A program made the position numbers and the translations under genes. From assembly GCA_963921795.1 (NCBI GenBank), contig OY997647.1, positions 62,391,155 through 62,455,154 on the forward strand: 64,000 bases of DNA, in the 5' to 3' direction. The DNA is from Nannobrachium achirus (taxonomy: Eukaryota > Chordata > Actinopteri > Myctophiformes > Myctophidae). This document shows positions 750-62,631 of this stretch, in pieces. The first letter of the stretch is position 1; every line of letters starts with the position of its first letter. Under the pieces are notes generated by a model that saw nothing but the letters and a program-made list of their open reading frames with translations, did not search any database and was not told where the DNA came from.

Positions 750-862
750 AATTAAACATTGGCCAAATTGTCAAATATTAGAGGCAGAAATTGTGAAAAT
801 AGCCGATCTACATGCTCACAACGCCTTGCAACGCGAGGCGTTGTGGAGCATGTACAAAGTAC
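750..862. mobile_element. hAT-like MITE fragment with shared hairpin
   Basis: The text from CATTGGCCAAATTGTC through the hairpin at about 797-856 matches the interior of the complete hAT-like element at 19308-19665. The termini are absent. The hairpin arms are GATCTACATGCTCACA and a decayed complement. A (TATAC)n run follows at about 866-895. Confidence 0.6.
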
Positions 863-940
863 ATGTACTATATACTATATACTATATACTATATACCAGT
901 GGCGATGCGTGCCCCAAGGGACCGGACCTTCCGCACCCCG

Positions 941-980
941 CACCCCCCCCCACCGCCCCCCCCCCCCCCCCCCCCCCCCC
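941..980. repeat. Poly(C) tract
   Basis: A C homopolymer interrupted by A and G, about 40 bases long. It gives rise to spurious proline-rich reading frames. Confidence 0.9.
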
Positions 981-984
981 GCAC

Positions 985-1350
985 GTACACATGCGCGCAA
1001 ATTGTATGCCTTTTTCATTCTTCTTTTTCTTTTACAAAACTGGTTAACAATGAACAGCAGACTGTGTACAAGGCAAGCACGCTGGGTAGGCTTAACCTAC
1101 ACACATACTCCAAACCAAGACTTCCAAACAATGCCAATATAAGGATTAAATAGATGTGCGCTGCTGACAGACAGAGCCACACAAGACACAACCAGCGCAA
1201 CCAATCGAAACGTCCATTTAACATAGCGTGCTTTACAAAGCAAAACGCACTGTCCACCATCATGTAACAACACCAGCTATCAATGTAAAGAAAGACCACG
1301 TCAAGAAAGACCCACATTAAATAGACAAAAACAGCCTAAGTGTATCAATC
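985..1350. other. No gene or repeat recognised
   Basis: Intronic sequence of ordinary composition. The reading frames here have no recognisable domain or flanking splice logic. Confidence 0.4.
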
Positions 1351-1354
1351 TGTC

Positions 1355-1508
1355 TTTCAATGTTATATGAGATACATAAAGTGGTTCCTGTGTAAATAAG
1401 CTGTAAGGTTTACTAGGATCTCCTTTTAGCTGACCAGTGATTTGTACTGTCATGAAACTGTACCTTTTCCAATTGCAAACTTCTAATACATTCTTCAATG
1501 ATCAATCA
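1355..1508 (+). mobile_element. Retroposon 3' end with (TCAA)n-type tail (family Q)
   Basis: This copy carries ACTAGGATCTCCTTTTAG, TTTGTACTGTCATGAAAC and TTCTAATACATTC, and ends in ATCAATCAATGG. The same block recurs at 49589-49731, 57730-57830 and, inverted, at 53572-53698. A 3' short-repeat tail is typical of non-LTR retroposons. The parent LINE or SINE is not identifiable from this part. Confidence 0.6.
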
Positions 1509-1515
1509 ATGGAAA

Positions 1516-2320
1516 TTAAATGCACAGCGGCATATCCCAGCAATATAAATTAATTCAGTTTCTCTCACCAATGAAGTTGTTCACTGAAGAAAAGAAAAAC
1601 ATCCTCCTGTCCTTTTGGGTGAATTTCTCAAAGATGGGTTCATAAAGCTATCATTCCTTTTAAGTTCTGTCCATCTTTTCATAAAACAGTCTTCTTGAAA
1701 AGGCAACGATAATAATAAATCCACAGCGTTCACTCCAGCTGCAGCCATGTCGCGTCTGTTTACTTTACAAGTTTCACGTGTAGTGCATAGTGAGTGTGAA
1801 ACATGCTTGTTGTTCCACTCCCAAGTCCCGGAAAAGCTGTGTTGTGATTGGCCAGTAGTCACTTGACCTCATTTTGATTGGTGGTTGAACGTGGGTGTTC
1901 CGTATACCTTGACCAGAGCCCTCAAATATGATTGGTTGATCAAACTGACAATCCACACCAAGGCTTGTATTATGGGGAACTGGCTCAGGGAATTCTGGAA
2001 GACCTGCGAGTGAGAGTAATCTGCGCAGAGACTCAGTAGAAAAAATCTCTCATTGGCTGTTATTTTCCCCAGCACACAAGCACTCCCTATGCACAGAACT
2101 TGGGGAAGAAACAACTACAACGAGTATAGCGAGCGAAACAGTGCAGTTTAACAGATTACCAACACAAATAATTGTAATTATTTTAATAAAAATAATAAAA
2201 ATAAAAATATATTTTTTATTTAAAATAAAAATATTATTTTCTTTCTTCTGAGGATCCCTGGGTCTTCTCTGAATACCCTGAAGGTCCTGAAAATTCGCCA
2301 CTGCTATATACTAAGCCTGT
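1516..2320. other. No gene or repeat recognised
   Basis: Intron 5 sequence, strongly AT-rich around 2160-2250. No coding signal was found. Confidence 0.4.
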
Positions 2321-2322
2321 CC

Positions 2323-2410
2323 GACAGGACAGGACAGGACAGGACAGGACAGGACAGGACAGGACAGGACAGGACAGGACAGGACAGTAACAGGACAGTA
2401 ACAGGACAGG
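2323..2410. repeat. (ACAGG)n microsatellite
   Basis: A 5-base unit repeated about 15 times, with two ACAGTA variants at the right end. It lies within 30 bases of the splice donor of trim71 exon 5, on the intron side. Confidence 0.95.
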
Positions 2411-2438
2411 GCTCATGTGTGATCAAGCAGCAGCTCAC

Positions 2439-2572
2439 CTTCCACAGTAGTTCACACTCTCTCTCCTCAAGGCCTTCTTGTGACGGAGGACGATGGCCTT
2501 CACCTCCGTCTGCACCACCTTGGCCTTGATCTCCACCTGTTCTGCCATGGCCTGGGCCTTCTCCATGCTCAG
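2439..2572 (-). CDS. trim71: trim71 exon 5: start of the coiled coil, one base short
   Basis: The exon is bounded by TCCTAG (acceptor) and GTGAGC (donor) on the minus strand. It begins in phase 0, continuing from exon 4. It encodes [18 protein letters not shown] and then [18 protein letters not shown], which closely matches the TRIM71 coiled-coil start in other vertebrates. After HKKAL the family reads [10 protein letters not shown]. Here that segment is present only one base out of frame: the text is TTGAGGAGAG where TTGGAGGAGAG is expected. The exon is therefore 134 bases instead of 135. Such a core gene is unlikely to be dead and the flanks are intact, so a sequencing or assembly error is the likeliest cause. 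The coiled coil mediates TRIM self-association. The rest of the protein (filamin and NHL repeats) lies outside the window. Confidence 0.93.
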
Positions 2573-2639
2573 CTAGGAGGCAAGAGAAAGTTTTCAGTTA
2601 ATAATTAGTATTGATTTGTGTACCGATTGTTGTCTAATG

Positions 2640-4235: not shown

Positions 4236-4505
4236 CAGTGTGTCTCAACACTGTGCCTGGGGACCTTTGGTGTGCCCCTGAGAAGGGTCAAGTGTGCCCC
4301 TTGAAACTGCTTGAAAAGCCAGTATTGTATTTATCATTTTAAAAATGATTTAAACTAGTGACAACAGCAGATCTACAAGCACACAACGCCTTGCGGTGCG
4401 AGGCGTTGTGTGCTTGTAGATCTGCTGTTTTCACTACTGTTGTGCGACAGCCTTGTATGATGAAGCAGGGCTTTACTTTGCAAAGAAACGTACACAAAGG
4501 TGACG
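4236..4505. mobile_element. hAT-like MITE, left part, with shared hairpin
   Basis: It starts CAGTGTGTCTCAACACTG and matches the complete element at 52486-52862 over its left two thirds. The hairpin at 4357-4435 has arms reading AGCAGATCTACAAGCACA. The right end is missing. Confidence 0.75.
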
Positions 4506-5193: not shown

Positions 5194-5764
5194 CAGAGGT
5201 TCCCAAACCTTTTTTGTCTCAGGGCACCCCATAAATATTATTTTTTTAATTTGAGGCACCCCTACATTATAATTTTCACTCCCAGCACCATATATTTATA
5301 GCATATCGTCGTTGTCGGGTAGAAACCTAGTATGTCCAAAACCTTTTCTTTTTTATTTATCATTTTAAAAATTATCTAAACTAGTGAAAACAGACGATCT
5401 ACAAGCACACATGCGAGGCGTTGTGTGCTTGTAGATCTGCTGTTTTCACTAGTTTTATGCAACAGTCTTGTATGATGAAGCAGGGCTTTGCTTTACCAAA
5501 AGACGTACTCATTTGAAACTTTGAGATACAAGGTTTCTACCCGACAGTGACAATATTTTAGTGATTATGTTGCGAGGAAAACGTTGAGATAATAGCCATA
5601 GAACTGACTGAAAATAACTTTGTACTATGATACTAAATATTTTTTCAAGTACTTTTTTCAAGTGTCCAAATAAATTCCAAATATTATCAAATTACGTCGC
5701 AGCACCCCTGGACTGCCGTCACGGCACCCCAGGGTGCCCCCGTCACCCACTTTGAAAACCCCTG
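5194..5764. mobile_element. hAT-like element with nested family F element
   Basis: The ends are CAGAGGTTCCCAAACC and the near-complement of CAGGGGTTTTCAAAG. Flanks CTGTAAAG (5186-5193) and CCGTAAAG (5765-5772) are an 8-bp duplication with one mismatch. A family F element, ATCGTCGTTGTCGGG to CCCGACAGTGAC, occupies about 5299-5556. It holds the shared hairpin at 5383-5450. Confidence 0.85.
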
Positions 5765-7617: not shown

Positions 7618-7795
7618 CAACCTCCACCCCTGATTTCTCACATGGCCCTCTTCTAGCGCCACCATCAGGCCGAGTTTGCAGCGCGGCACTCGGTGCCGGC
7701 CTGTGAGCTTGTATATCTGCTATTTTTCAATAGCTAAAGCATAAAATAATAACACGCAATAATACCCAGTCTAAATGGATTAATTACAGTGTAGA
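7618..7795. mobile_element. Fragments of family M and of hairpin family J
   Basis: TTTCTCACATGGCCCTC (inverted M) leads into GAGCTTGTATATCTGCTA, a single hairpin arm of family J. That runs to the J end, TCTAAATGGATTAA. Confidence 0.55.
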
Positions 7796-8231
7796 AGTGA
7801 TGGAGTGGGCCAGGTGAGAGGTACCTGCTGAGGTGTGTGTGTGTGTGTGTGGGCCTCGCCCACCCACTCGGCTGCTTAAGGGTGTCCCCGTCAACACAAA
7901 AGGTCAGGCGTGAGTGAGCGATGGGCGAGACCGCAAACGATGTTGAGGAAACATTTAAGAAGACGCGCCGTGAGGTCATATGACCTCGGCGGAACGGGCT
8001 TGTGTTTCAGGTTTCTAGTGACTCGTCCACCCCAAGGTCAGCGCATTGCTGCACCGTCCAGGCGGGTTACGCAACACTAGAATGTTAACTACCCCTGTGA
8101 GCTTTAGGTCGAGCTCAAAACCCTGAAGCAAGGCATTCGAAACATGTTTTAAAAGCATTCCTAATCCTAACAGCTTGGTGATGGTGAACGGAACCCTCCC
8201 GTCTCTTGTTCTGCGCATCAAAAGCAGTGTT

Positions 8232-8375
8232 GTTTTTGACAGCACATTTTGATTTAGTTTTAGTCATAGTCTTTTGAATAACATTTCAATTAGTTTTTGT
8301 CATAATTTAGTCACCTGAAAAGTATTAGTTTTAGTCTAATTTTAGTCAACTAAAATACCCTAAGATTTTAGGCAA
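8232..8375. mobile_element. hAT-like family D fragment
   Basis: AGTGTTGTTTTTGACAGC followed by TTTTGATTTAGTTTTAGT matches the left part of the complete element at 23741-24281. Confidence 0.65.
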
Positions 8376-8621
8376 GGCTTGAGCTTATTCGTTCCTTTAT
8401 ACTGCATGTATAGAGCAGGACGTTAACTTATTTAGAATGTATTTATTCATACAGACAACTAAAGAAGAGCATTTCATCGACACTTAAAATGTATAAACAG
8501 ATTAGCATTACTCTCAACAAGGTCCTGCCTTGATGAATAAAATGGTATTCCCAAAAGCGCAGGGAGGAGGTTGACTGAGGACACGGTATCAACCTTTATC
8601 AACCACTCACCAAACCAGTAG

Positions 8622-8950
<329 letters not shown>

Positions 8951-9336
8951 TTTATGGCGTGGCACAGTAGGAGGGCAGCAGTCTAGTAGAGGGTCTGTCT
9001 GTGTGTTTAACTAGGGTTAATCACACAAAACACAAGACTAGACTGATCAGCACCAAACACAATTTCTGTTTTTATTCTTTTTTATTTTTTTTAATAAAGT
9101 CAAAGGCAGTGGGATCAGGCTGAAACCTTGCCCAAATCTGGAACCACACAACACTTTCACTGTTTACTTTCTGCTAACACATGCTGGAAATGTTACTAGC
9201 AAGCTTACTGAAAGATTTCAAACACCAAAACTGCTGCCACACAAGATCAGTGACACAACATGGATTTCAATTAATACTGCCTGCATTTTGGCAATGTGAA
9301 AAACACACCAATATATGCCTGACTTCAGAGACCATC

Positions 9337-9516
9337 CACCAGTGGCATTGGCGACTCATTCTTATGACTTCCTATCTAGCCAAGCTTTATAAACTATATT
9401 ATTTTTTTAAAGAGAAAACAATAAAATAAAAAAAAATAAGCGAATATTCGACTTGGTGAACAACGTCGAATAGTGACTTTGATATTCGAATATTCTAATA
9501 TTTGGTGAATGCCCTA
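9337..9516. mobile_element. hAT-like family E, right-end fragment
   Basis: CTAGCCAAGCTTTATAAAC, GAATATTCGACTT and the end GGTGAATGCCCTA match the complete copies at 12345-12866 and 18230-18733. Confidence 0.7.
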
Positions 9517-9581
9517 GTTCACAACTTCCTCCTCTTGGCCTCTGCCACTACTTTCTTATCTCATATATTCTGCAGCCATCT

Positions 9582-9618
9582 TCCTCCCCCCCCCCCCCAT
9601 CTCCCCCCCCCCCCCCCC
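9582..9618. repeat. Poly(C) tract
   Basis: Two C runs split by ATCT. Confidence 0.9.
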
Positions 9619-9878
9619 AAGAGATCAGCATCACAAATCAGCATGCCGTTTAATAAAAACGTTGAGCACGCGCCCAGGCAGGCTGATACAGATATCAACT
9701 CCGGATAATAGGCCCGATTTTATGCCACATTATACACATGGAGAAGGTCCTCTTTTGTGTCCGCCTGCCCTCCGCAGATGCTTCCTTAACATGCGTCGCG
9801 TACCTTTCTCTGTGGAGCACAGCTGGAGCTCCGGAGAGGCCTGCACGTAATCTACAATCATGTAAATGAAGAGGGGTT

Positions 9879-9881
<3 letters not shown>

Positions 9882-9950
<69 letters not shown>
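9882..9950. repeat. (GT)n microsatellite
   Basis: Two (GT)n runs joined by a GGT step, followed by a purine-rich GA block. Confidence 0.97.
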
Positions 9951-9951
<1 letters not shown>

Positions 9952-10299
9952 CAGAAAGAGAGACCGCAAGAGAGATAAAGAGAGAGAGAGGAGGGAAAAG
10001 AAGGGGGTGGCAGCATTCTACTGCTTTGAAAGGGGAGGGGACGTTTTCCTTTCTCTGAAATCCTTTAAATACCTCCCTACCCCCCCTCTCCCCCCCCTCC
10101 TCTGTTCCCCTACCCCTCCTCCCCTTTGACCTTCAAGGCCTGCCCTCACCAGACCTCACCCCATACGACCCAACCCCCCCCCCCCCCCCCCCCCCTCCCC
10201 CCTCTAAGGCCAGCTGGCCAACCTCTAACCTCCCATGCTTCTCAGAGCCTGGGCCTGGTCACTCTCAAGACATAGTGGTGGTGGGGGCAAAACCCTTCA

Positions 10300-10750
10300 T
10301 TTCAGTGAACGAACCGTTTCGTTCACGGCAACGATCCGTTCAAATGATCCGTTCAAATGATCCGTTCAAATGATCCGTTCAAATGATCCGTTCAAATGAT
10401 TCGTTGGCCGTTCAGTGGTGCTTCCCTGCCTGGTCGCACGCATACATTTTGACCATTTGAAAACTTCAAATAGGAACATTTTGCATAACGAGTACTTTAA
10501 GTACATTTTGAAACCAATACTTTTTGTACTTTCTCCTCAATGGACATTTTGAATTCCTGACTTTTACTTGTAACAGAGTATTTCTACATTGCAGTATTGA
10601 TACTTTTACTTAAGTAAAACATTTTAGTACTTTTCACACCACTGGACTCGGGGGAGGCGGAGGGGTGAACGAAAGCGTGAACGTAATATTTTAAGGGAAA
10701 TGAGCGAATCGTTCACGGTTCTTTCTTGTGATTCGTTCTCTGAATCGCGT
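10300..10750. mobile_element. Nested MITEs with 13-bp tandem repeat
   Basis: The outer sequence has GAACGAACCGTTTCGTTC on the left and GAATCGTTCACGGTTC on the right, an inverted pair. A 13-bp unit, CCGTTCAAATGAT, is repeated about five times (10336-10400). A second element ending TACTTTTCACACCACTG (10643) is nested inside; that end matches a common fish hAT-like MITE. Confidence 0.55.
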
Positions 10751-10754
10751 TAGA

Positions 10755-11430
10755 TTTTAACCACTTTAACCATTTATTTTATGCTTTAACTATTGAAAAA
10801 TAGCAGATATACAAGCTCACAGCGCAGCACCGAGTGCCACGCTGCGAGCTTGTAGATCTGCCATATGTCTCTGAATATCTTTGACCCGACGTCTAAATCC
10901 TTCCTCTGAATCAGTGGATCTGAAACTTTTTCCAAGTCAAGGACCCCCAAAATTACAGGTATTTGGCCGTGGACCCCCATCTCAAAATATGTTGTTCCAG
11001 GGACCCCCCCAGGAGCAGAGATTTGAGTTACAAAAGTTTGCTTTGGAAAAATATATATTGAAAAATGTGCACACATTTTCACGATTAGTTCAAAAATAGC
11101 AGATCTACAAGCTCGCATCTGCTATTTTTCAATAGTTAAAGCATTCAATATATATATATTATTTTTATAAATGTTTATCCCATGATTTTGTAACCCATTT
11201 TCACCCAATGCCAATTGCCTATGTAATCCTGGGCTCTGCTCTCCTTCTGCCGCGCCTGGGGAGACAACGGACTGACCTCATGCTTCCTTTAGAGAGGAAC
11301 ACGCCCCCAGCGCCCACAGCGTCCCCCGACGGGAATCGAACCCAGGACCTTCTAGCTGTGAGGCGAAGCGCTAACCACTGCGCCACCGTGCCTCAATGCA
11401 TTCAATAATTCTAGGCCTAAATGGATTTAA
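10755..11430. mobile_element. Family J element with two hairpins, interrupted by a SINE
   Basis: Shared hairpins sit at 10802-10862 and about 11096-11135, flanking a hAT-like segment (10915-11035, GGACCCCCAAAATTACAGG). A SINE at 11151-11397 interrupts the right arm. The J end CTAAATGGATTTAA finishes at 11430, four bases from the splice donor of trim71 exon 4. Confidence 0.7.
11151..11397 (-). mobile_element. tRNA-derived SINE type 1 with 10-bp target duplication
   Basis: The head reads GAGGCACGGTGGCGCAGT on the minus strand, with box B as GGTTCGATTCCC. The body lacks the central block seen at 2640-2999. GCATTCAATA flanks both sides (11141-11150 and 11398-11407). Confidence 0.88.
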
Positions 11431-12344: not shown

Positions 12345-12866
12345 TAAGGCATTCACGAATAGTGATTTTTAGTATTCGAATTATTCGATCTCAAAGTGTT
12401 CAAATAGTCGAATATTCGACAGGACTGGCCAAACTGTCAAATATTAAGCAAGAGGCAAACATTGTGAAAATAGCAGATCTACATGCTCACAACGCCTCGC
12501 GTTGCGAGGCGTTGTGAGCATGTAGATCTGCTATTTTCACAATATTTATCTGTGGAACCGAGTCACATTAAATGTAATACCTACAATTCCAAGTGCTTGT
12601 CAGGGTGGGGGTCCCCAGTTCAAATATGTTTATTTTGGGGGTCACAGCCTAAAACGGTTTGAGAAGCCCTGGTATAGAGCATTAACAAATTCATCCACCA
12701 GGGGCATTGACAACTCATTCTTATGACTTCCTTCCTATCTAGCCAAGCTTTATAAACTATATATTTTTTAAAGAGAAAACAATAAAAAAAAAAAAAAAAG
12801 AATAAGCGAATATTCGACTTCGGTGGACAACGTCGAATAGTGACTCGAATATTTGGTGAATGCCCT
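12345..12866. mobile_element. hAT-like family E element with shared hairpin
   Basis: The ends are TAAGGCATTCACGAATA and the complement of TAGGGCATTCACCAAAT. Flanks GCGCAGAG and TTGCAGAG agree at 6 of 8 positions. The interior contains a hAT-like segment ending CGGTTTGAGAAGCCCTGG and a perfect 83-bp hairpin at 12461-12543 (40-base arms, 3-base loop). Confidence 0.8.
12461..12543. repeat. Perfect 83-bp hairpin (shared module, type A)
   Basis: The left arm starts ATTGTGAAAATAGCAGAT and includes CTACATGCTCACAACGCC. The right arm is its exact complement. The outer ten bases are specific to the hAT-like shell. The inner core is shared with other families. Confidence 0.95.
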
Positions 12867-12963
12867 ATTGCAGAGTCACCATCACCTCTCAATGACATGG
12901 AGAGACCAGAGAGATCAATACATGCATCAGGAAGTTTGTTTGTGTCACTCACTCCCCCATCCA

Positions 12964-13117
<154 letters not shown>

Positions 13118-13532
13118 CCTCAGTTTCCACAGCTAATGAATGTGGAAGTACATGAATGACAAGCAGGGCATCCATATGTATATATGCCTGACCAGGGACC
13201 CCCCAGGGACCGGCTGCCTGCCTACCGTAAAGCTCAGGGAGGATGGAGGGATTAGCAGGCTGCACCCAACAACACGGATCAATATTGTTTTGGGCCTTTC
13301 TTTCTCTGAGCCTGGGGAGTTCAGTTGGGATCATGTAATATGTGAATTTGTGAAATTTAACATTTCCACACCACCTTTTGCCATTTAGCCATTTAAAAAA
13401 AGGCAGCTTTCTATTCATTTAGTTCAGAAAGAAAACCAAAAACAATCTTAATATGTTTTGGTTAACTTTTTTTGGGTTGTTTAAAGTTAAATCTCTATAT
13501 TCTGATAGTAGCCTAACCATTGATATACACAG

Positions 13533-13793
13533 TATATCGTCACTGTCGGGCAGAAACCTCGTATCTCCAAGTTTCAAATGTAAACGTTTTTTTTTTCGTC
13601 AAGTTAAGCCCTGCTTCATCATACAAGGCCGTCGCACAAAAGTAGTGAAAACGGCAGATCTACAAGCACACAACGCCTCGCGGTGCGAGGCGTTGTGTGC
13701 TTGTAGATCGGCTGTTTTCACTAGTTTCAATCATTTTTAAAACGACGAACGGTTTTGGACATACAAGGTTGTCACCCGACAACGACGATATAT
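13533..13793. mobile_element. Family F MITE with shared hairpin
   Basis: Terminal inverted repeats are TATATCGTCACTGTCGGG and the near-complement at CCCGACAACGACGATATA. The hairpin at 13644-13722 is perfect except for base changes near GATCGGC, with 38-base arms and a GGT loop. Other copies: 5299-5556, 25230-25461, 33029-33552, 60079-60314. Confidence 0.8.
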
Positions 13794-13799
13794 AGAATG

Positions 13800-16005: not shown

Positions 16006-16762
16006 TTTATACTTGAAAAAGAACATTGATAGTGGAAACAGCAGATCTACAAGCTCACACCGCGTCCCATCGCGACGCGTTGTGAGCTTGTAGATCGGCT
16101 ATTTCCACTATTTTTGAAAATGTTTGAAAATATGAAAATATTTCAACATGTAAACAATTATGACGATTATCTCTCTTATTAATTTTTATCCCACGATTTT
16201 GTAACCCATTTTTCACCCAGTGCCAATTGCCTATGTAATCCTGGGCTCTGCTCTCCCTCTGCCGCGCCTGGGGAGACAACGGACTGACCTCATGCTTCCT
16301 TCTATGCATGAGGAGTCCAAGTTGCTTCTTTTCACCTGACAGTGGGGATTCCCCAGTTTGGACGTAGCGCGTGGAAGGAACACGTTATTCCAACCAGTTC
16401 CTTTCCCCTCCATCAGGCGCCCCGGCTGGCCAGGGGGAGGCATTATAGAGACCAGGATTACTGCATGTCTTTGTGAGGGTATCAACCCTAGGAGACAAGG
16501 GGAGAACATGCAAACTCCACACAGAAAGGCCCTATCACCAACCCCACCTAGGGTGTGGGCGCTGATGACGCGGAGGGAGGAACACGCCCCCAGCACCCAC
16601 AGCGTCCCCCGGCGGGAATCGAACCCAGGACCTTCTAGCTGTGAGGCGAAGCGCTAACCACTGCGCCACCGTGCCCCCGAATTATGACTATTAGGCCAAA
16701 ATAATTGCGATTATGTCAAATAATTGCGATTAGACGATTATGTAATAATTGTGACAGCCCTA
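16006..16762. mobile_element. hAT-like family B element interrupted by a SINE
   Basis: The shared hairpin is at 16030-16110, flanked by TAGTGGAAA arms. The right end TTGTGACAGCCCTA finishes at 16762. The left end is missing. A SINE (16171-16679) lies between. Confidence 0.7.
16171..16679 (-). mobile_element. tRNA-derived SINE type 1, long copy
   Basis: This is the fullest of the three copies. It has a tRNA-like head, box B, the ATGCAAACTCCACACAGA block, an extra segment at about 16300-16430 and the tail GGTTACAAAATCGTGGGA. Flanking AATTATGACGATTA and AATTATGACTATTA form a target duplication with one mismatch. Confidence 0.85.
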
Positions 16763-18229: not shown

Positions 18230-18733
18230 TAGAGCATTCACCAAACATTCGAATATTCGAATATCAAAGTCACTATTCGACGTTGTTCACCGAAGTCGAA
18301 TATTTGCTTATTTTTTTTTTTTTTACGGTTTTCTCTTTAAAAAGATATAGTTTATAAAGCTTGGCTAGATAGGAAGTCATAAGATTGAGTTGTCAATGCC
18401 CCTGGTGGATGAATGTGTTAATGCTCTATACCAGGGGTTCTCAAACCTTTTTAGGCTGTGACCCCCAAAATAAACATATTTGAACTGGGGACCCCCACCC
18501 TGACAAGCACTTGGAATTGTAGGTATTACATTTAATGTGACTCGGTTCTGCAGATAAATATTGTAAAAATAGCAGATCTACATGCTCACAACGCGATCGG
18601 CTATTTTCACAATGTTCGCCTCTTGCTTACTTAATATTTGACAGTTTGGCGAGTCCTGTTGAATATTCGACTATTCAAATACTTTGAGGTCGAATAATTC
18701 AAATACTAAAAATCACTATTCGTGAATGCCCTA
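18230..18733. mobile_element. hAT-like family E element, perfect 8-bp duplication
   Basis: Ends TAGAGCATTCACCAAAC and the complement of TAGGGCATTCACGAATA. CCTAAGAC flanks both sides (18222-18229 and 18734-18741). A segment starting CCAGGGGTTCTCAAACC is nested. The hairpin near 18566-18612 is shortened. Confidence 0.9.
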
Positions 18734-19307: not shown

Positions 19308-19665
19308 CAGTGGTTCTCAACCTGTGGGTCGGGACCCCCAGAGGGGTCCCCAAATGATTTGGGGGGGTCCCCAAATGTTTAGCTAAATCAATAGCTTTTT
19401 AGTACCTCTGGTCAAACATTGGTCAAATTGTCAAATATTAGAGGCAGAAATTGTGAAAATAGCAGATCTACATGCTCACAACGCCTCGCAATGTGAGGCG
19501 TTGTGAGCATGTAGATCTGCTATTTTCACAATAGAATCATCAAGTCTAACTACCGTAAATTCAAATGCCAACTCCTACAATTCCAAGTGCTTGTCAGGGT
19601 GGGGGGTCCCCAGTTCAAATATGTTTATTTTGGGGGTCGCAGCCTGAAAAGGTTGAGAACCACTG
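19308..19665. mobile_element. hAT-like family A element, perfect 8-bp duplication
   Basis: Ends CAGTGGTTCTCAACCTGT and GGTTGAGAACCACTG. TTTTAAAG flanks both sides (19300-19307, 19666-19673). The hairpin at 19450-19532 is nearly perfect. At 358 bp it is non-autonomous. Confidence 0.92.
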
Positions 19666-22732: not shown

Positions 22733-23154
22733 TAGGCTGGTCACGATTATGACATTTTACATGACGATTAATTGTCACTCAAATAATTGCGATTAACTAT
22801 TTTATTGCGTTTTTGTCGTTGACAATTACATTTCTGTTTGGCTCGTAGGCTCTGAAGTTGCACATGGTAGATAGGACACATAACCCAAATATACAAAGAA
22901 ATGAAGGACATATTTGACAACTTTACACTTTAAAAAGGACATTGATAGTGGAAATAGACGATCTACAAGCTCACAACGCGTCACATCGTGACACGTTGTG
23001 AGCTTGTAGATCTGCTATTTCCACTATTTTTTTAATGTTTGAACATAATATAAACATTTTTCAACAACAACGATTACGACGATTATCACAAAATAATTGC
23101 GATTCTTTCAAATAATTGCGATTAGACGATTATGTAATAATTGTGACAGTCCTA
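22733..23154. mobile_element. hAT-like family B element with shared hairpin
   Basis: TAGGCTGGTCACGATTAT and AATTGTGACAGTCCTA are the ends. The hairpin spans 22946-23026, with TAGTGGAAATAG outer arms. No clear duplication. Confidence 0.75.
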
Positions 23155-23740: not shown

Positions 23741-24281
23741 CAGTGTCGTTTTTGACAAGCAAATTTTGATTTAGTTTTAGTCATTAGTCTTTTGAATAAA
23801 ATGTAATTTAGTTTTAGTCCTAATTTAGTCACGTGAAAGGTTTTAGTTTTAGTCTGATATTTAGTCGACTAAAATATCATAAGATTTTAGTTGACTAAAT
23901 CTACAGTTGATTTAGTCAACTGAAATGTATTTTGGCAGGCCTTGATGACATCGTAATGACCGATTTTACACTTGGTTGCATGCTGAAAATAGCCGATCTA
24001 CAAGCTCACAACGCGTCGCGCTGCGACGCGTTGTGAGCTTGTAGATCTGCTATTTTCAGCACGCAACACCTGATAGCAAACAAACATAAAATTACTTTCT
24101 CCTCCACTAGTCCCTCCCTAACGTTTTAGTCTAGTTTTTATTTTGTTGACAAAATTGTCAATTATATTTAGTTTTAGTTTCAGTCATCACAGCTTAGTTT
24201 TTATTTAGTTTTCGTCAGTGAAAAAAAAACGCAGTCGACAAACATTTTTCGTCATAGTTTTAGTCGACGAAATCAACACTG
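23741..24281. mobile_element. hAT-like family D element, perfect 8-bp duplication
   Basis: CAGTGTCGTTTTTGACAA and GTCGACGAAATCAACACTG are the ends. GTTCTGAG flanks both sides (23733-23740, 24282-24289). The hairpin at 23975-24067 has outer arms GTTGCATGCTG specific to this family. Confidence 0.9.
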
Positions 24282-27093: not shown

Positions 27094-27273
27094 CAGTGGT
27101 TCTCAAAGTGGATTCCAGGGACTTTGTGGGGGTCTAAATTGACACATACAAGTCTGTAACTCTAACAGCATACAAATGGAACCAAATGGACCCTAACGGG
27201 TCCATTTGGTTCCATTTGTACACTGTCAGAGTTAAGGGGAAACCTTGAAAAGGTAAAGGTTTGAGAAACACTG
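27094..27273. mobile_element. hAT-like MITE, perfect 8-bp duplication
   Basis: CAGTGGTTCTCAAAGTGG and GGTTTGAGAAACACTG are the ends. AGTTAGAC flanks both sides (27086-27093, 27274-27281). Inside is a small palindrome, TAACTCTAACAG to CTGTCAGAGTTA, with GGTCCATTTGGTTCCA arms. Confidence 0.9.
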
Positions 27274-30024: not shown

Positions 30025-30449
30025 TAGGAATGGGACGATATGAACATTTCATATCACGATTATTGTGACAAAAGAAATCACGATTTACGATATTATCGCG
30101 ATAATCAAATCCATTATTCTGGGGCGGAACATTTGCCAAAAATAGCCGGTCTACAAGCTCACAACGTGTCGCAAAATGCGACGCGTTGTGAGCTTGTAGA
30201 TCGGCTATTTTTTGGCAAAGACATTTGATAGAGTGAAAAAAAAAGACTGTATCAAGTACGTATATTATAAGTACCTTTTACCAATTATAGAGGGTTTAAA
30301 TGGTACCAGATATGCAGCTCTGCAAATAAGAAAGATTAATTGATCCCAGTGCATGACGGGAGGACGACATCACGATAAATAAAATCTCCACGATACGATT
30401 ATCGTGAGTGTTTTTTACCACAATAGAATCTCTTATCGTCCCATCCCTA
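30025..30449. mobile_element. hAT-like family C element with shared hairpin
   Basis: TAGGAATGGGACGATATG and TTATCGTCCCATCCCTA are the ends. Flanks GGTTCCGT and GGTTGAGT agree at 6 of 8. The hairpin at 30132-30219 has outer arms TTTGCCAAAAATAG unique to this family and a GTCTACAAGCTCACAA core. Confidence 0.82.
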
Positions 30450-38015: not shown

Positions 38016-38398
38016 TAGGGCTGTCACGATTAAGACATTTTACATGACGATTAGTTCAAATAATTGCGATTAACGATTTAATTGTGTTTTTGTCGTTGAC
38101 AATTACATTCCTGTTTGGCTCGTAGGCTTTGAAGTTGCACATGGCAAATATGACACATAACCTAAATATACAAAGATACAAAGACATATTTGACAACTTT
38201 ATACTTAAAAAAAGAACATTGATAGTGGAAATAGCCGATCTACAAGCTCGCAACGCATCGCGAGCTTGTAGATCGTCTATTTCCACTATTTTTGACTTTC
38301 TTATTAAATATATGTACGTTTTTCAACATGGAAACGATTATGACGATTATGAAAAATAATCGCGATTAGACGATTATGTACCAATTGTGACAGCCCTA
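38016..38398. mobile_element. hAT-like family B element with hairpin
   Basis: TAGGGCTGTCACGATTAA and CAATTGTGACAGCCCTA are the ends. Flanks CCTCTTTC and CCTCTCTC differ at one base. The hairpin at 38223-38288 has a deleted tip. Confidence 0.9.
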
Positions 38399-47595: not shown

Positions 47596-48755
47596 GGGGC
47601 GTCACAAGGAGGGGGGGAACAGTGGGACTGAGTTACTAGGGCCCAAGGTGGAGGAGGGGCCTTCATTATTTTATATACTTTAGCTATTGAAAAATAGCAG
47701 ATCTACAAGCTCCGAGTGCCGCGCTGCAAGCTTGTAGATTTGCTATTTTTGAAAAGTTGTGAAAATGTGTGCAAATCTTTGAATACTTTAGTCTATGTAT
47801 TTTTTGCTTCCCTGGAAGTAAATATTTGGAGATGGGGGGGGGGGGGGGGCAAATACATATTCTTTTCGGGGTCCTTCACATGAAAAAGTTTGAGCAACGC
47901 TGACCTAGAAAAACCTTAGAAGGATTTGAAATATACAAATTTTCACTATTTAAAAAAAATTGTTGATCTACAAGCTCGCAGCGCGGCACTCAGGGGCGCT
48001 GGAAGTGGGGTGCTGAGGGAGCTGCAGCTCCCCTGGTGGTGGGGAGGGAGGAAAAAGATTATTATTATTATTATTATTTTTTTTAATAAGCCCATATGCC
48101 TACACACACAGAGCTATATTAAAACAATAATGTATTTGACTTTGGGGAATAAAATATGTTGAAAAAAGGTATTTGATTATCACATGGTGACCTAATCACA
48201 TGGTCACCTTGCCACTTCCGGTCAGAAGGGAAGTCAAATTTAAATCCCGCTTTGATGGCACACCAAAGTCTATTCATTTGAGAACTAGAAACTGTCTATA
48301 GGCTCATTGTTGCAAACTAACACCGTTGTATATGGGGAATAAAAAACTGTAGAAAACTGTTACAAAAATAATACCCGATTTTGTAGTGTGTGCGTGAGTG
48401 ACTGTGTGTGTGCATGCGTGCTGTGTGTTGCACTGTGTGCTAAAATAACTAGTAACTATATAGCTCCTTGTTACACCGTTGTGCGGGGAATAAGCACCCG
48501 AAACCGTAATAAAAATAACCCAAAACCGGATAAAAAACGTGAATTTTTCGGCGTGCGGCCTTTGGCCGCACGCATGAACTCCTCCAAGCTCAGCTCCCCT
48601 TGGGATATGGGAGTTCCAGCGCCCCTGGCGGCACTCGATGCCGCGCTGTGAGCTTGTATACATCTGCTATTTTTCAATAGTTGAAGCACAAAATAATGCA
48701 TAATAATGTGTTCCCAGTCTAAGGGGCCCGCAGTGAATCCTTGTACGCAGGGCAG
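47596..48755. mobile_element. Family H/J element with insertion in hairpin tip
   Basis: Left end CAGGGGCGTCACAAGG. Hairpins: one at about 47693-47745, a second split between 47960-47990 and 48628-48672. The second is interrupted at its loop by the 637-bp element at 47991-48627. The right end is lost at the Mutator-like element that follows. Confidence 0.7.
47991..48627. mobile_element. hAT-like element inserted in a hairpin loop
   Basis: CAGGGGCGCTGGAAGTGG and the complement at GAGTTCCAGCGCCCCTG are the ends. GCGGCACT flanks both sides exactly (47983-47990, 48628-48635). Inside are two related blocks of about 60 bp (near 48300 and 48466) and a hairpin GCGTGCGGCCTTTGGCCG. No coding frame. Confidence 0.9.
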
Positions 48756-52485: not shown

Positions 52486-52862
52486 CAGTGTTTCTCAACC
52501 ACTGTGCCTGGGGACCGTCGGTGTGCCCCTGAGAAGGGTCAAGTGTGCCCCTTGAAACTGCTTGAAAGCCAGTACTGTATTTATCATTTTAAAAATGATT
52601 TAAACTAGTGAAAACAGCCGATCTACAAGCACTACAAGTTGTGTGCTTGTAAATCTGCTGTTTTCACTACTGTTGTGCGACAAGCCTTGTATAATGAAGA
52701 AAGGGCTTTACTTTGCGAAGAAACGTACAAATTTGAAACTTGGAGATACAAGGTTTCTTCCTGACAGTGAGGATATTTACACCCCCGTATTATGTTGGTG
52801 TGCCCATGGATTCTTGGGACATGAAAAGTGTGCCCATGCAGAAAAAAGGTTGAGAAACACTG
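52486..52862. mobile_element. hAT-like element with hairpin, perfect 8-bp duplication
   Basis: CAGTGTTTCTCAACCACT and AAAGGTTGAGAAACACTG are the ends. CACTAGAA flanks both sides (52478-52485, 52863-52870). The interior includes family F text (TTGGAGATACAAGGTTTC) and a shortened hairpin at about 52605-52670. Confidence 0.93.
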
Positions 52863-53913: not shown

Positions 53914-54430
53914 CAGGGGTGGGCAACTTTGATGGTGGCGAGCAGGCGAGGGCCACTATATTTCCACCTTCACTCCAGAGGGCCACTAAATTTCCACCTT
54001 CACTCCAGAGGGCCACTATATTTCCACCTTCACTCCAGAGGGCCACTATATTTCCACCTTCACTCCAGAGGGCCACTATATTTCCACCTTCACTCCAGTG
54101 GGCCACATTGCATATCGCTACGTCCTACTTTGTCATTCTAGTATCTCATACAAAAGAAGCAAAAACAGCAGATCTACAAGCTCAAAACCTATCGCAGCTT
54201 GGAATCATGAATACGTTTTTGTTGTTTTTGAATTGGAATCCTGAAATATAACATTTTTATCAAATTTCAAATGCATTTAGTGATATACTCATGTTAACTT
54301 TATTAACCTAAATACAAATACATTGGACAAAAAAAAACATTTTAATACTACTATACTAGTTACGCTACTAATATAGACTGATGGAATTAAAGAAGGTCAT
54401 GTTTGGAATTGTAACAGCTGAAATCAGGGG
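53914..54430. mobile_element. hAT-like family G element with 30-bp tandem repeat
   Basis: CAGGGGTGGGCAACTTTG is the left end. Five exact-spacing 30-base units of GGCCACTATATTTCCACC type fill 53951-54100. One hairpin arm (AGCAGATCTACAAGCTCA) follows near 54165. The right end is missing. A fuller inverted copy is at 58222-58668. Confidence 0.75.
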
Positions 54431-57969: not shown

Positions 57970-58165
57970 CCTACGGTTAACAGCAGACATACAAGCTCAC
58001 GTCGCGTCGCAGATGCAACCGTTGAGAGCTTGTAGATCACACTCGGCTGCGGCGCTGGAAGCTCCGTGCAACGTCTGCGCAATGCACGATGGGATGTTGG
58101 AAAGTTGTGGATACATTTTCGTCTACAATCATGGGATGCACTGTGAGCTTGTAGGTCTGTTATAT
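57970..58165. repeat. Shared hairpin arms split by about 110 bp
   Basis: CAGACATACAAGCTCACG (about 57982) and GTGAGCTTGTAGGTCTG (about 58140) are the two arms. A second right-arm fragment, GAGAGCTTGTAGATCAC, lies at about 58024. The inserted text has no clear ends. Confidence 0.55.
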
Positions 58166-58221: not shown

Positions 58222-58668
58222 CATACATGGGCAACTGGCGGCCCGGGGGCCACATGCGGCCCCCAGCTTCACTTTAATGCGGCCCGCAGGTTAATACCGG
58301 AATACTGATATATTATTGATTTCAGCAGTTACAATTCCAAACATGACCTGCTTTAATTCCATCAGTCTATCTTAGTAGCTTAATAGTATTATTATTATTA
58401 TTATTTATTTTTATGTGCAATATATTTGTATTTAGGTTCATAACGTTAACTAAATGCGTTTGAAATTAAATCAAAATGTTAGATTTCAGGATTCCAATTC
58501 AAAAGAAGCAAAAATCTACAAGCTCAAAACTGAGCTTGTAAATCTGCTATTTTTGCTTAATTAAGATACTAGAATGACAAAGTAGGACATAGAAATATGC
58601 AAAGTGGCCCTCTGGAGTGATGGTGGTAATATAGTGGCCCTCGCCATCATCAAAGTTGCCCACCCCTG
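58222..58668. mobile_element. hAT-like family G element
   Basis: CATACATGGGCAACTGGC and AAAGTTGCCCACCCCTG are the ends. Flanks GCCTAGGT and GCCTAGAT differ at one base. A small hairpin with AAATCTACAAGCTCAAAA arms is at about 58510-58556. Confidence 0.88.
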
Positions 58669-59440: not shown

Positions 59441-59445
59441 ATGCC

Positions 59446-59526
59446 TAAACCTAAACCTAACCCTAACCCTAACCCTAACCTCAGTAAAACTATGCCTAAA
59501 CCTAACCCTAAAACCTAACCCTAACT
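59446..59526. repeat. Interstitial telomere-like repeat
   Basis: CCTAAA and CCCTAA units, with three perfect CCCTAA in a row and several variants. Shorter runs occur at about 62143 and 45328. Confidence 0.8.
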
Positions 59527-59737
59527 AAATTCAGAGTCAGATTATGAGATTTAGGACTAATGAGATTTCGGATCTATGGGCAGTCCCCTGTCCCACTCTC
59601 GTGCGACCGCAGCTGTTGTATACTGCATACAGTACATAGGGACACATACATATAGGGTACAGCTCCATAAGTGGGATTCCGGGCATTATGCTCTAAAACG
59701 TTGGTGCTGCATACATAGGGACCTACACACTAAGTCA

Positions 59738-59770
59738 AACATAGGAGCGGTTAGCACCGCTCAAAAAGAT
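59738..59770. mobile_element. Family P 3' end fragment
   Basis: ATAGGAGCGGTTAGCACC, then GCTCAAAAA: the terminal hairpin alone. Confidence 0.65.
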
Positions 59771-60078
59771 GTTGTACAGCATCATCATTTTTTGGGGGGT
59801 TATTTATCTCTATAAAGAATATTCCAATTAGAAGATGAAAATATGATTTCATATTGAAATGGCCCTACTGGTTATGAATTGAAGAGTGGAGGTTTCGTGT
59901 CGGCCACGGTCCCACTGTGACCACATTTGTTGTGGTCCAATCCAGGGACGTGCTGGCCATTGGGAAAAGCGGGACAACTCCCGAACGGCCGGTTCATTCC
60001 CTAGGAAAAAATTAAGAATAAAATGTCGGCCTTCGTTCCATTTTGGGGGCTGGGCGGCCAACAAAGTAAATCGTCAGT

Positions 60079-60314
60079 TCGTCACTGTCGGGCAGAAACC
60101 TTGTATCTCCAAGTTTCAAATTTGTAAATTTTTTCGCAAAGCAAAGCCTTGCTTCATCATACAAGGCCGTCACACAAAAGTAGTGAAAACAGCAGATCTA
60201 CAAGCACACAACGCCTCGCACCTGTGTGCTTGTAGATCGGCTGTTTTCAGTAGTTTAGTAGATAAATACAAAACAAACGGTTTTGGACATACAAGGTTTC
60301 CACTCAACAACGAC
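60079..60314. mobile_element. Family F MITE with hairpin
   Basis: CGTCACTGTCGGGCAGAA at the left, a worn right end. The hairpin lies at about 60183-60252, with a shortened tip. Confidence 0.75.
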
Positions 60315-60391
60315 AAAATTTAACTCATGTAACTGGCCCACTGGCTTGTCACTTGTCATGATCTGAAATGGCAAATCTTTGAGTAGCAGCA

Positions 60392-60423
60392 GCGCTATAG
60401 AGAGAGATCTCTCTCTATAGCGC
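60392..60423. repeat. Perfect 32-bp palindrome
   Basis: GCGCTATAGAGAGAGA followed at once by its exact complement, no loop. Confidence 0.97.
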
Positions 60424-60827
60424 GCAATGAGGGCCTCTACAACTCTTTTTCCCGGGCTGAATCAGAGGCCCAGAACGTCCCTGGTCCAACCACAAACGAT
60501 GTTGTCTGGTTTGACGTGATGCACCATGAAGTGCTTCTCCTCCAAAGAGAGAACCGGAGCTGACAGAGTCGTGACTACATGGTGACGTAGCAGTGACGCT
60601 GTGGGACCTCTGGGGAAGGTGGTTGCCTGGGCTGCCTTCATATCCACGTATTGGTGCTCAGCAGTGTTCATTTAGATTGTTTGACGACAAACCTTTGTTC
60701 AGTTATAGTCAGGCATGTGCACACATAGACATCAAAGGGGGCTTGAGCCCCTGCCCTTTTACCCGTCTGTAAAAAGTGCCCTCTCCAGACCATGAATGCA
60801 GTTTTTATACTGTGGTGAAAGAAATGC
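60424..60827. other. No gene or repeat recognised
   Basis: A minus-strand open frame (60462-60671) has no recognisable domain. Confidence 0.35.
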
Positions 60828-60842
60828 AAATGCCCCTCTTTC

Positions 60843-61034
60843 GGGCGCCCGCTGGCCTGGTGGTCAAGGCGCATACCACATACTAGGCTATGATGCCTGC
60901 TGGCGTCGCCGGTTCGATTCCCGATCTTTTGCCACATGTCATTCCCCATCTCTCTCCCCATTTCCTGTCAGTCTGCTGTCCTATCAAATAAAGGCATAAA
61001 AAAAGCCCAAAAATAAATCTTAAAAAAAAAGAAA
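60843..61034 (+). mobile_element. tRNA-derived SINE, type 3, with 15-bp duplication
   Basis: GGCCTGGTGGTCAAGGCG (box A region), GGTTCGATTCCCG (box B), a CTCTCTCCCCATTTCCTG body, AATAAAGGC and an A-rich tail. AAATGCCCCTCTTTC flanks both sides (60828-60842, 61035-61049). Confidence 0.92.
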
Positions 61035-61204
61035 AAATGCCCCTCTTTCCATGCCATACCCGAAGGCACTCAAGGCAGCATTCAAGAGAATTGCCTTGTT
61101 CAAACTTTAATGCAGCATCTTATGTTGAAATAATTGCCCTCTCTGTGTAGAAATCCAAGTATTCTCCAGTGTTCACTTGATTATACTTAGTTCAGTGTGG
61201 TATC

Positions 61205-61275
61205 AAGTACCGAAAATAGCCGACCTCCAAGCTCACAAGGTGTTGCGCTTGGAGGTCGGCTATTTTCGATATTTT
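61205..61275. repeat. Hairpin, GACCTCC variant
   Basis: AAATAGCCGACCTCCAAG and its complement flank a short tip. Adjoining AAAAGGCCATTTTAG text matches the second hairpin in the element at 20600. Confidence 0.85.
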
Positions 61276-61329
61276 CACCAAAAGGCCATTTTAGAAATGT
61301 CAGACCCTGCCTAACATTCTCTGCACGTC

Positions 61330-61635
61330 CCTGATTATAGTCATAGTCTTATGAATAATCTAAAATGTATTAGTGGTAGTCTAGTTTTAGTCGACTAAAT
61401 CTACAGTTGATTTTGTCTACTATAATGTATTTTGGCGGGCCCTAATGACTGATTTTACACTTTAAATAGCTGATCTACAAGCTCTCAGCTGCGACACGTT
61501 CTTTGATGAAATTGTCAATATATATAGTCTTAGCATAGTTTTTATTTAGTTTTTATTCAGTTTTGGTCAGGGAAAAAAGGCAGTCGACTAACACTTTTCG
61601 ATTTAGTTTTAGTCAACAAAATCAACTCTGGAGCT
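61330..61635. mobile_element. hAT-like family D, worn copy
   Basis: GTCTAGTTTTAGTCGACT and TTAGTTTTAGTCAACAAAATC match 23741-24281. A single hairpin arm is at about 61467. Confidence 0.65.
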
Positions 61636-61641
61636 CAGCTG

Positions 61642-62085
61642 GAGGTCCTGCTCTGAAAGCTGATTAAGTATTGGCATAGAGAGAGCAAACACGTGGGTGT
61701 CAAGGGGGAATGAGGCGCTGGAGAGAATTGAGAGAGAAAGGGGAGAGAGACATTGATTTTGTCTGGCACTCTCCTCTCTCTTCAAGGACTTGGCACTGGC
61801 ATATCGACTTCATCTCATGGCTGAGAGGCTGTTTAAATTCAGTCTCATCCTTGACGGTCAGAAAGATTTCAGGGCATGGTGTGGGACTGGGTTGGTCGTT
61901 GTTCTTTTGGTGGTATACTGTATAAGTATAACTGGTTTACTGGTGGGGATACATCATGCAATGACTCAACTTCACAGTGAAGGTTTAACTGCCAAAGTGT
62001 TCAAATGGATCCTTTTTTGTCACTTCTCCTAGCATCCAATAAAGCCTGATTAATATTTACATTGGTGGAAACTCGTGAGTGCATC
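61642..62085. other. Unassigned stretch with a hydrophobic small open frame
   Basis: The frame 61790-62032 (+) encodes about 80 residues with a hydrophobic run GLVVVLLVVYCISITGLLVG, followed by CCAATAAAGCC. No family is recognised and no splice or promoter evidence supports it. It could be chance or a decayed repeat. Confidence 0.2.
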
Positions 62086-62088
62086 TCT

Positions 62089-62472
62089 CCATTCCGACAT
62101 GTCTCCTTTCCGACATGTCTCCATTCCGACACCCTATCTCTTACCCTAACCCTAACCTTAAAGGAGCTATAGTCAACTTTTTCATTGTAGGGCCGACACT
62201 TTGTTTACATCCTAGTCTATAGACTAGAATGTAAACAAAGTGTCGGTCTGACAATGGCCAAAATGATTATTTTATCATTATTTTACGCTTTTTGTGGTCA
62301 TTTTTGAATAGAAACACATTTTTTCATAAAATATTTTCGAAACATTATTTTTATTCTAGCATCCGTTTTTCAAGAAAAAGTTGACTATAGCTCCTTTAAC
62401 CTCTATGGAAGTGTTGCCACTCCGACAATAAGAAGTCACTGTCGGAGTGGCGACATGTCAGAATAGAGAGCG
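62089..62472. mobile_element. Palindromic repeat with nested TTAA MITE (family T3)
   Basis: The outer inverted pair is CCATTCCGACATGTCTCC and GGCGACATGTCAGAATAG. Nested at 62158-62399 is a TTAA element with ends TTAAAGGAGCTATAGTCAAC and its complement. Its interior fold is GTTTACATCCTAGTCTA against TAGACTAGAATGTAAAC. Confidence 0.85.
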
Positions 62473-62631
62473 CCCCCCGAAACTCGTTGTGAGCTTGTGG
62501 ATCAGCCATTTTCAGTTGTGCAACTTACGTAGCACGTACAAATCAGGCATAAGGTAGGTGGTTTTATTTTCATTTTCCACATAACTGCCAATGTCCGGAA
62601 ATTGAATGCTACAAAATGTTACCCTGAGTGT

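What the first reader, a model, noticed from the sequence alone, without database searches (positions are those of the whole stretch)
797..62515. One hairpin module inside at least eight otherwise unrelated transposon shells
The core GATCTACAAGCTCACAACGC, or a close variant, and its complement form hairpins at 30 or more places. Good examples are 4357, 5383, 12461, 13644, 16030, 19450, 22946, 23975, 30132 and 38223. The shells have different ends (CAGTGGTTCTCAA, TAGGGCTGTCAC, TAGGGATGGGACG, TAGGGCATTCAC, CAGTGTCGTTTTTG, ATCGTCACTGTCGGG, CAGGGGTGGGCAAC, CAGGGGCGTCAC). The outermost 8-12 arm bases are shell-specific (TAGTGGAAA, TTTGCCAAA, GTTGCATGCTG, AGTGAAAAC). The inner core is common, but each shell has a diagnostic tip: CGTCGC, CCTCGC or GCGGCAC. 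This suggests an old, conserved structural module kept as shells diverged, or moved between shells.
Basis: partly seen in the sequence, partly recalled or inferred. Interest (0 to 1): 0.88.

Follow-up and report, generated by a model that had tools for sequence, protein, structure and literature searches.

The report
Shared palindrome inside unrelated jumping genes
A 90-base DNA palindrome sits in the middle of many otherwise unrelated small jumping genes in this genome; it looks like an old part of the control region of one group of transposons that has since been passed on by one jumping gene landing inside another, and it breaks easily once in place.

Summary
The core occurs at 38 places in the window (20 with both arms) and 54,361 times exactly in the genome, reversed control 0. 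It is a near-perfect 80-90 bp palindrome, usually near the middle of non-coding elements with hAT hallmarks.

Origin: the same inverted arms, at the same 33-bp spacing, lie between the 5' end and the transposase start codon in two BED-type hATs whose proteins are 35% identical (L031, L091). The hairpin is the only clear leader DNA match. This favours an old inherited module.

Spread: some shells gained it by nesting. Seven J-shell copies show a clean empty site for a hairpin-bearing, non-hAT module. Shell K holds a nested A element.

In A, C and F, copies lacking all or part of the hairpin are deletions, 21 of 21 junctions distinct, not empty sites.

Pairing is kept between families (19 of 43 pairs doubly changed, 0/500 shuffles) but decays within them (108 one-arm versus 6 symmetric). 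Function is inferred. Closest precedent: coral CMITEs.

The parts
12345..12867 (.). K shell (TAGGGCATTCAC ends, one mismatch) holding a nested A element; hairpin about 12458-12546
   Evidence: flanks GCGCAGAG/TTGCAGAG 6 of 8; DNA fold z -16.2
18230..18733 (.). second K copy; nested A right end starts at 18432; hairpin arm at 18575
   Evidence: 8 of 8 target duplication CCTAAGAC
13531..13794 (+). solitary module 1 (CGTC..TGTCGGG ends, ATAT on both sides), hairpin 13639-13727
   Evidence: fold z -17.6
5194..5764 (.). J shell (CAGRGGTTCCCAAA) with module 1 inserted at 5305-5554; hairpin arms 5396 and 5418
   Evidence: 7 of 8 target duplication; empty-site alignment
19308..19665 (.). A shell (CAGTGGTTCTCAAC), hairpin arms 19465 and 19498
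   Evidence: 8 of 8 target duplication TTTTAAAG, ends 14 of 14
23741..24281 (.). E shell (CAGTGTCGTTTTTG), hairpin 23975-24067
   Evidence: 8 of 8 target duplication GTTCTGAG, ends 11 of 14; fold z -15.3
38016..38398 (.). C shell (TAGGGCTGTCAC), hairpin arms 38237 and 38255
   Evidence: 7 of 8 target duplication
52486..52862 (.). B shell (CAGTGTTTCTCAAC) with truncated module 1, hairpin arm 52636
   Evidence: 8 of 8 target duplication CACTAGAA; module homology
59943..60483 (.). D shell (CAGGGACGTGCTGG) with module 1, hairpin arms 60195 and 60219
   Evidence: 7 of 8 target duplication
30025..30449 (.). I shell (TAGGGATGGGACG), hairpin arms 30148 and 30183, outer arm TTTGCCAAAAATAGCC
   Evidence: flanking duplication 6 of 8
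22942..23030 (+). C-type hairpin near a TAGGGCTGTCAC-type right end (23154)
   Evidence: fold z -14.3
4322..4481 (-). module 1 fragment in a B-type context, hairpin arms 4370 and 4403
16044..16096 (+). C-type hairpin, arms 16044 and 16077
47965..48662 (.). hairpin of the GGCAC-tip type interrupted in its tip by an inserted 637-bp element (47991-48627)
   Evidence: 8 of 8 duplication GCGGCACT, ends 14 of 14; arms

Best explanation
It is one homologous palindromic cis element of a hAT transposon lineage, not a separate mobile element. Ancestrally it was a pair of inverted copies of a roughly 20-bp motif, 33 bp apart, in the leader between the 5' terminal repeat and the transposase start codon of BED-finger hATs. 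Non-autonomous derivatives kept it near their middle while ends and flanks diverged. Further shells acquired it when a hairpin-bearing element inserted into them and the composite then multiplied through the outer ends. The most likely role (inferred, not shown) is as an internal DNA site for mobilisation, for instance an inverted pair of BED-type transposase sites, with arms kept matched in the lineages that multiply. In resident copies the palindrome looks like a weak spot: it is often deleted with one-off breakpoints, and its arms drift apart. Shown: similarity, position in leaders, nesting for J and K, deletions, covariation. Inferred: common descent of all classes, binding, selection, and the physical cause of the deletions.
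For: Leader position: L031 has its 5' end at 725, arms at 898 and 931, ATG at 1049; the element runs into L034 and is bounded by GATGTGCT on both sides, 8 of 8. The same leader lies upstream of all 7 transposase copies of that family listed (leaders 97-100% identical, so not independent). L091 has its 5' end at 222, arms at 569 (4 mismatches) and 602 (2 mismatches), ATG at 985. The proteins are 35% identical and start at the same residue, and the hairpin is the only clear DNA match between the leaders. Shuffled cores gave no arm pairs in the 16 transposase loci, 30 shuffles. Relatives L035 and L037 keep a left arm with 2 mismatches. With hairpins masked, most shells compared share nothing. J empty site: 39 of 40 scored copies match the joined flanks in an unbroken stretch, the 40th being the filled source copy, and 7 fetched copies show the intact target. 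K contains A's right end. Deletions: 21 of 21 junctions differ. Covariation: 19 of 43 pairs, 0/500 shuffles.
Against: Only 2 clear leaders plus 1 doubtful (L054) were found among 12 transposase families whose upstream stretch was readable. L093, which also has a TAGGGTTGGG-type end upstream of a BED frame, showed no arm. The L091 pair does not fold better than shuffles (z +0.33), so the autonomous form is not always a hairpin. The transposase-bearing partners of shells A, C, E, F and d were not found. The J0 shell multiplies without any hairpin, so it is not generally required. Module 1 is not hAT-type, which weakens a hAT-transposase-specific role. One family variant (A, CATGC) loses the AAGC motif. 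The deletion copies were picked because they match a hairpin-less query.
Confidence: 0.55

Rival explanations
1. The hairpin is itself a small mobile foldback element that inserted separately into each shell.
For: It is the only shared part of most shells compared, and it occurs in hAT and non-hAT elements.
Against: Fetched A, C and F copies without all or part of the hairpin are irregular deletions with different junctions, 21 of 21; no precise empty site with duplication was seen among them. Arms extend into shell-specific sequence. The two autonomous leaders hold it between the 5' end and the ATG.
Confidence: 0.1
2. The hairpin works as RNA: a stem in the 5' untranslated leader of transposase mRNA, or a precursor of small RNAs that help or silence the elements.
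For: It lies between the 5' end and the ATG in L031 and L091. The pairing is long and covaries.
Against: No Rfam family reaches its gathering score in the window. Folding (DNA parameters) is weak in the autonomous leaders: z -3.1 for L031, +0.33 for L091. MITEs carry no transposase gene that a leader could regulate. Transcription was not tested.
Confidence: 0.2
3. No function: the palindrome arose once, spread by nesting and hitchhiking, and looks conserved only because families multiplied recently.
For: Nesting is shown for J and K. J0 multiplies without it. Resident copies lose it in many different ways.
Against: Compensatory changes between families (0/500 shuffles), flanks mostly unalignable while the nine hairpins stay 82% alike over 89 columns, and presence in leaders of transposases 35% identical suggest constraint.
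Confidence: 0.3
4. The perfect MITE palindromes were made by copying: during gap repair the new strand snapped back at the imperfect leader hairpin, copied its own arm, then switched to the other end, which gave central palindromes with shell-specific outer arms.
For: MITE hairpins are central and, in the four folded, far more stable (z -14 to -17.6) than those of the transposase carriers and their relatives (-3.9 to +0.3). Outer arms are shell-specific yet paired.
Against: A mismatch just outside GATC (A on one arm, C on the other) recurs across several families (6 of 9 unpaired at that pair), which fresh copying would erase. In L031 and L091 each arm differs from the core at other positions than its partner, as expected if a near-perfect palindrome came first.
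Confidence: 0.2

Closest known systems
CMITE elements of Acropora corals (PMC2872659; abstract, sections 10 and 14 read)
   Same: MITE families with different ends but a shared internal region (75 bases there) more conserved than the ends; a new element created by insertion of one into another sequence; a role in transposition proposed there.
   Different: CMITEs are about 100 bp with TTAA duplications, tied to piggyBac-like elements, about 1,600 copies; the origin of the internal region is unknown, and no palindrome is described in the sections read. Here the shells are mainly hAT, the module is a long palindrome, copies are far more numerous, and it is traced to transposase leaders.
Tol2 with its internal Angel element (PMC8151067, passages seen)
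   Same: A fish hAT transposon carrying an internal inverted-repeat element.
   Different: Reported there for one autonomous element; no sequence was at hand to compare with this core.
Hermes hAT transposon and its BED-domain subterminal repeats (PMC10368747, passages seen)
   Same: BED domains of a hAT transposase bind quasi-palindromic pairs of short repeats inside the element; one further palindromic pair lies far inside (from bp 276).
   Different: Hermes sites are short AAGT-type motifs, concentrated near the tips. The present 80-90 bp palindrome is not shown to bind anything; its ACAAGC motif is only a lead.
Non-autonomous hAT MITEs in general
   Same: Short, non-coding, 8-bp duplications, YAGNG ends, high copy number.
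   Different: [quoted passage not shown] here an internal module is shared although ends and flanks are not.

Membership tests
hAT superfamily (shells A to K) | 8-bp target site duplication | tested here: met
   7 or 8 of 8 in at least one copy of each shell (both scans required at most one mismatch)
hAT superfamily (shells A to K) | terminal inverted repeats of YAGNG type | tested here: met
   (the scan required this, not)
hAT superfamily (hairpin-bearing transposase carriers) | BED finger and C-terminal dimerisation domain PF05699 | tested here: met
   L031 both domains and 8 of 8 duplication; L091 BED, with a PF05699 hit 1.5 kb downstream at C4:73243058 taken as the same gene
hAT superfamily | own transposase for shells A, C, E, F and d | not tested
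hAT superfamily (module 1) | 8-bp target site duplication | tested here: not met
   and empty site: only ATAT (2-4 bp) is repeated
Tc1/mariner-like (module 1) | TA target duplication | tested here: inconclusive
   TA, ATA or ATAT all fit; no transposase identified
piggyBac-like (inner part of F and G) | TTAA duplication at a demonstrable insertion | tested here: inconclusive
   TTAA and CCACTTGAACC ends seen in F; 3 of 40 scored copies match across the join and, when fetched, are deletions, not clean empty sites
CMITE-like MITE group | internal region more conserved between families than the ends | tested here: met
CMITE-like MITE group | TTAA duplication and CCYT ends | tested here: not met
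   shells have 8-bp duplications and YAGNG ends
Angel element | sequence identity to Angel | not testable with these tools
   no Angel sequence or other fish genome available

The most novel reading that the evidence does not exclude
The palindrome is a portable recognition module: a BED-hAT transposase (or a host factor) reads this inverted pair, so that elements with different ends can be cross-mobilised once they acquire it by nesting. That would make it a driver, not a passenger, of its roughly 10^5 to 10^6 arms in this genome.
Probability: 0.12. Interest if true: 0.85.

Novelty: new variant of a known kind. Interest (0 to 1): 0.6.

Why it matters
Ends are usually taken to decide which transposase moves a MITE. 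A conserved internal palindrome that outlives the ends, is traceable to transposase leaders, and is passed on by nesting would point to internal cis sites as units of selection. Because the families carry the palindrome ancestrally and many copies lost it by one-off deletions, the genome also offers a large natural series of palindrome-breakage events whose junctions can be read directly.

Tried and rejected
Rejected: a chance repeat (shuffled cores); a known RNA family at gathering scores (none); the hairpin as a self-inserted unit in the A, C and F copies fetched; frequent arm-to-arm correction in resident copies (108 one-arm, 6 symmetric and 3 other double changes in 38 copies of four families). 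The L054 leader pair was left as inconclusive (6 and 5 mismatches, spacing 43 instead of 33, weaker in relatives). Real-core arm pairs were found in 7 of 16 transposase loci; in L030, L052, L053 and L055 they are MITE-type hairpins judged to lie outside the leader or nested, though for L052 and L053 this could not be settled. L030 and L055 have subterminal hairpins of unrelated sequence. L032 and L053 are partly masked. The ends 53914 and 58668 could be a 4.75-kb element, but their flanks do not match; frames up to 139 residues were listed and not searched for domains. A guess (snake pipefish, PMC10795108, passages seen) was not tested. Other species could not be searched. The nine literature searches showed no report of this palindrome in the listings seen; only open-licence papers are held.
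Full report
WHAT IS THERE. The window lies in a 1.66-Gb assembly. The core GATCTACAAGCTCACAACGC occurs exactly 54,361 times in the genome and 0 times for the reversed control. The variant with CACAC instead of CTCAC (module 1 type) occurs 61,188 times, control 0. In the window there are 58 arms at up to 5 mismatches, at 38 places, 20 with both arms. With at most 4 mismatches there are 54, and shuffled cores give a mean of 0.04. In 20 fixed-coordinate stretches on 20 contigs (200 kb) I counted 109 arms. Scaled up this is of the order of 900,000 arms, a rough figure from a small sample.

ANATOMY. The outer arm (consensus ...AAAATAGC), the 20-base core and a 5-bp tip stem with a 3-base loop form one palindrome. 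Four window hairpins fold as single-stranded DNA at -38 to -52 kcal/mol, z -14 to -17.6. The tips CTCGC, GTCGC and GGCAC go with families. One position just outside GATC is often unpaired (A on one arm, C on the other) in several families (6 of 9).

SHELLS. A scan for 8-bp duplications plus YAGNG ends gave 24 rows, 16 of which hold a core arm; one of the 16 (window 7679-10844) is a chance pairing of tip sequences. Shells found: CAGTGGTTCTCAAC (A), CAGTGTTTCTCAAC (B), TAGGGCTGTCACGA (C), CAGGGACGTGCTGG (D), CAGTGTCGTTTTTG (E), CAGGGGTCTTCAAC (F), CAGGGGTTTTCAAA (G), CAGGGGTCAGCAAC (H), TAGGGATGGGACAA (I), CAGGGGTTCCCAAA (J), TAGGGCATTCAC (K) and CAGGGGCGTCAC (d; two hairpins). In single-hairpin shells the arms lie at 0.37-0.70 of the length. 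With hairpins masked, most shell pairs share nothing at E 0.001; the exceptions are B, D, H and J (one inner module), A and K, G and J (outer ends), a 29-base match between F and G, a weak match of A to d (72%), an 18-base match of C to K, and copies of one family with each other. Half-flank clustering of 135 hairpin places (66 with both arms) gave 20 clusters of two or more and 51 singletons; the largest cluster merges several families.

NOT A SEPARATE INSERTION IN A, C OR F. I joined the shell flanks without the hairpin and searched the genome (40 candidates scored each time). Many A and C copies and 3 F copies match across the join. Among 28 copies fetched (A 11, C 12, F 5; chosen among the matches and therefore biased towards hairpin loss), 21 have lost the hairpin wholly or in part at the join: 7 in A (L039-L045, keeping 2-58 of 83 palindrome letters), 10 in C (L066-L075, keeping 0-29 of 81), 4 in F (L085-L088). 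All 21 junctions differ. The other 7 keep most of it or show other small losses. L043 lacks the usual left end of A. So the hairpin appears ancestral in these families and is lost by one-off deletions. Deletion rates elsewhere in the elements were not measured.

SPREAD BY NESTING. Module 1 occurs alone, with ATAT on both sides in the four solitary copies seen with both ends, and inside B, D, H and J. For J, 39 of 40 scored copies match the hairpin-less join unbroken, 35 of them over the whole query to within 2 bases; the 40th is the filled source copy. Seven fetched copies show an intact target, and the two filled copies, at different sites with different duplications, carry module 1 between ATAT repeats. 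Module 1 is therefore a non-hAT element (2-4 bp duplication) that landed in a hAT MITE, and the composite then multiplied. For D no unbroken copy appeared among 40 scored. K holds the right end of A with its hairpin and lacks A's left end.

ORIGIN. A genome search with PF05699 scored 150 of 1,653 candidates. I fetched upstream stretches of 16 transposase loci: 12 families readable, two more partly masked (L032, L053); the 5' end itself was recognised only in some. L031 (BED finger and PF05699) has arms at 898 and 931 between its 5' end (725) and ATG (1049). Its 3' end lies in L034, and GATGTGCT stands on both sides, 8 of 8. The same leader stands upstream of all 7 transposase copies of that family listed; these are near-identical. 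Diverged relatives L035 and L037 keep a left arm with 2 mismatches. L091 (BED finger) has arms at 569 and 602 between its 5' end (222) and ATG (985). The first ~85-107 bases searched recur at the other 39 scored places, which supports the end; none of these extends into the leader. The two proteins are 35% identical over 272 residues and start at the same residue, yet the hairpin is the only clear similarity between their leaders. The 33-bp spacing equals that of standard MITE hairpins. L054 has a doubtful pair. L029 and L090 (one family), L033, L050 and L051 (one family), L056, L092 and L093 showed none inside the visible part; L090 showed only 173 bases before its frame, and L093 has a TAGGGTTGGG-type end yet no arm. 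L030 and L055 have unrelated 5' hairpins; L052 has MITE-type hairpins of unsettled position.

CONSTRAINT. Nine representatives (one per class, chosen because they have the standard 13-base tip; a tenth, decayed one was left out) give 88.6% paired cells, 19 of 43 pairs with changes on both sides, 39 such cells; 0 of 500 shuffles reach these, 6 of 500 reach the number of further pair types (32), and slid structures give 5-8 pairs. Choosing well-kept hairpins favours pairing. Within four families (38 of the 66 two-armed hairpins) there are 108 one-arm, 6 symmetric and 3 other double changes. Pairing is therefore kept in the lineages that multiply and decays in resident copies. Pairing is weak in the transposase carriers (z -3.1 for L031, -3.9 for relative L035, +0.33 for L091), so what they conserve is the inverted motif more than a stable hairpin. 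This is why I favour a site for a DNA-binding protein over an RNA stem, at modest confidence.

LITERATURE. Hermes BED domains bind quasi-palindromic subterminal repeats (PMC10368747, passages). Tol2 holds an internal Angel element (PMC8151067, passage). Coral CMITEs have an internal region more conserved than their ends and one element made by insertion (PMC2872659, abstract and sections 10, 14). The CMITE case makes this a new variant of a known kind.

VERDICT. Function remains inferred.

Noticed in passing
window 47991-48627: A 637-bp element with perfect CAGGGGCGCTGGAA ends sits in the tip of a hairpin with duplication GCGGCACT.
   Followed up: partly
window 57986-58157; L010:8195, L016:7576, L023:6186: A distinct variant (GACATACAAGCTCACGTCGC-like on one arm, a GATYTACAAGCTC-like sequence on the other) with its own flanks recurs at four places.
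   Followed up: no
L025:2706-2786: Several core arms lie in direct succession, a small tandem array of the motif.
   Followed up: no
L030:443-499; L055:1662-1740 counted on its reverse complement: 5' ends of other hAT families carry long hairpins of unrelated sequence just inside the terminal repeat, so subterminal hairpins may be common in hATs here.
   Followed up: partly
window 53914-54300 and 58440-58668: Two inverted, 79% similar ends (CAGGGGTGGGCAAC), each with a hairpin, 4.75 kb apart, without matching duplication.
   Followed up: partly
window 27094-27273: A 180-bp hAT MITE (CAGTGGTTCTCAAA, duplication AGTTAGAC 8 of 8) without a hairpin.
   Followed up: no
window 38509-39655: A 37-bp minisatellite of 31 near-identical copies just downstream of the C element.
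   Followed up: no
window 59444-59525: A short CCTAAC-type array, resembling telomere repeat inside the chromosome.
   Followed up: no
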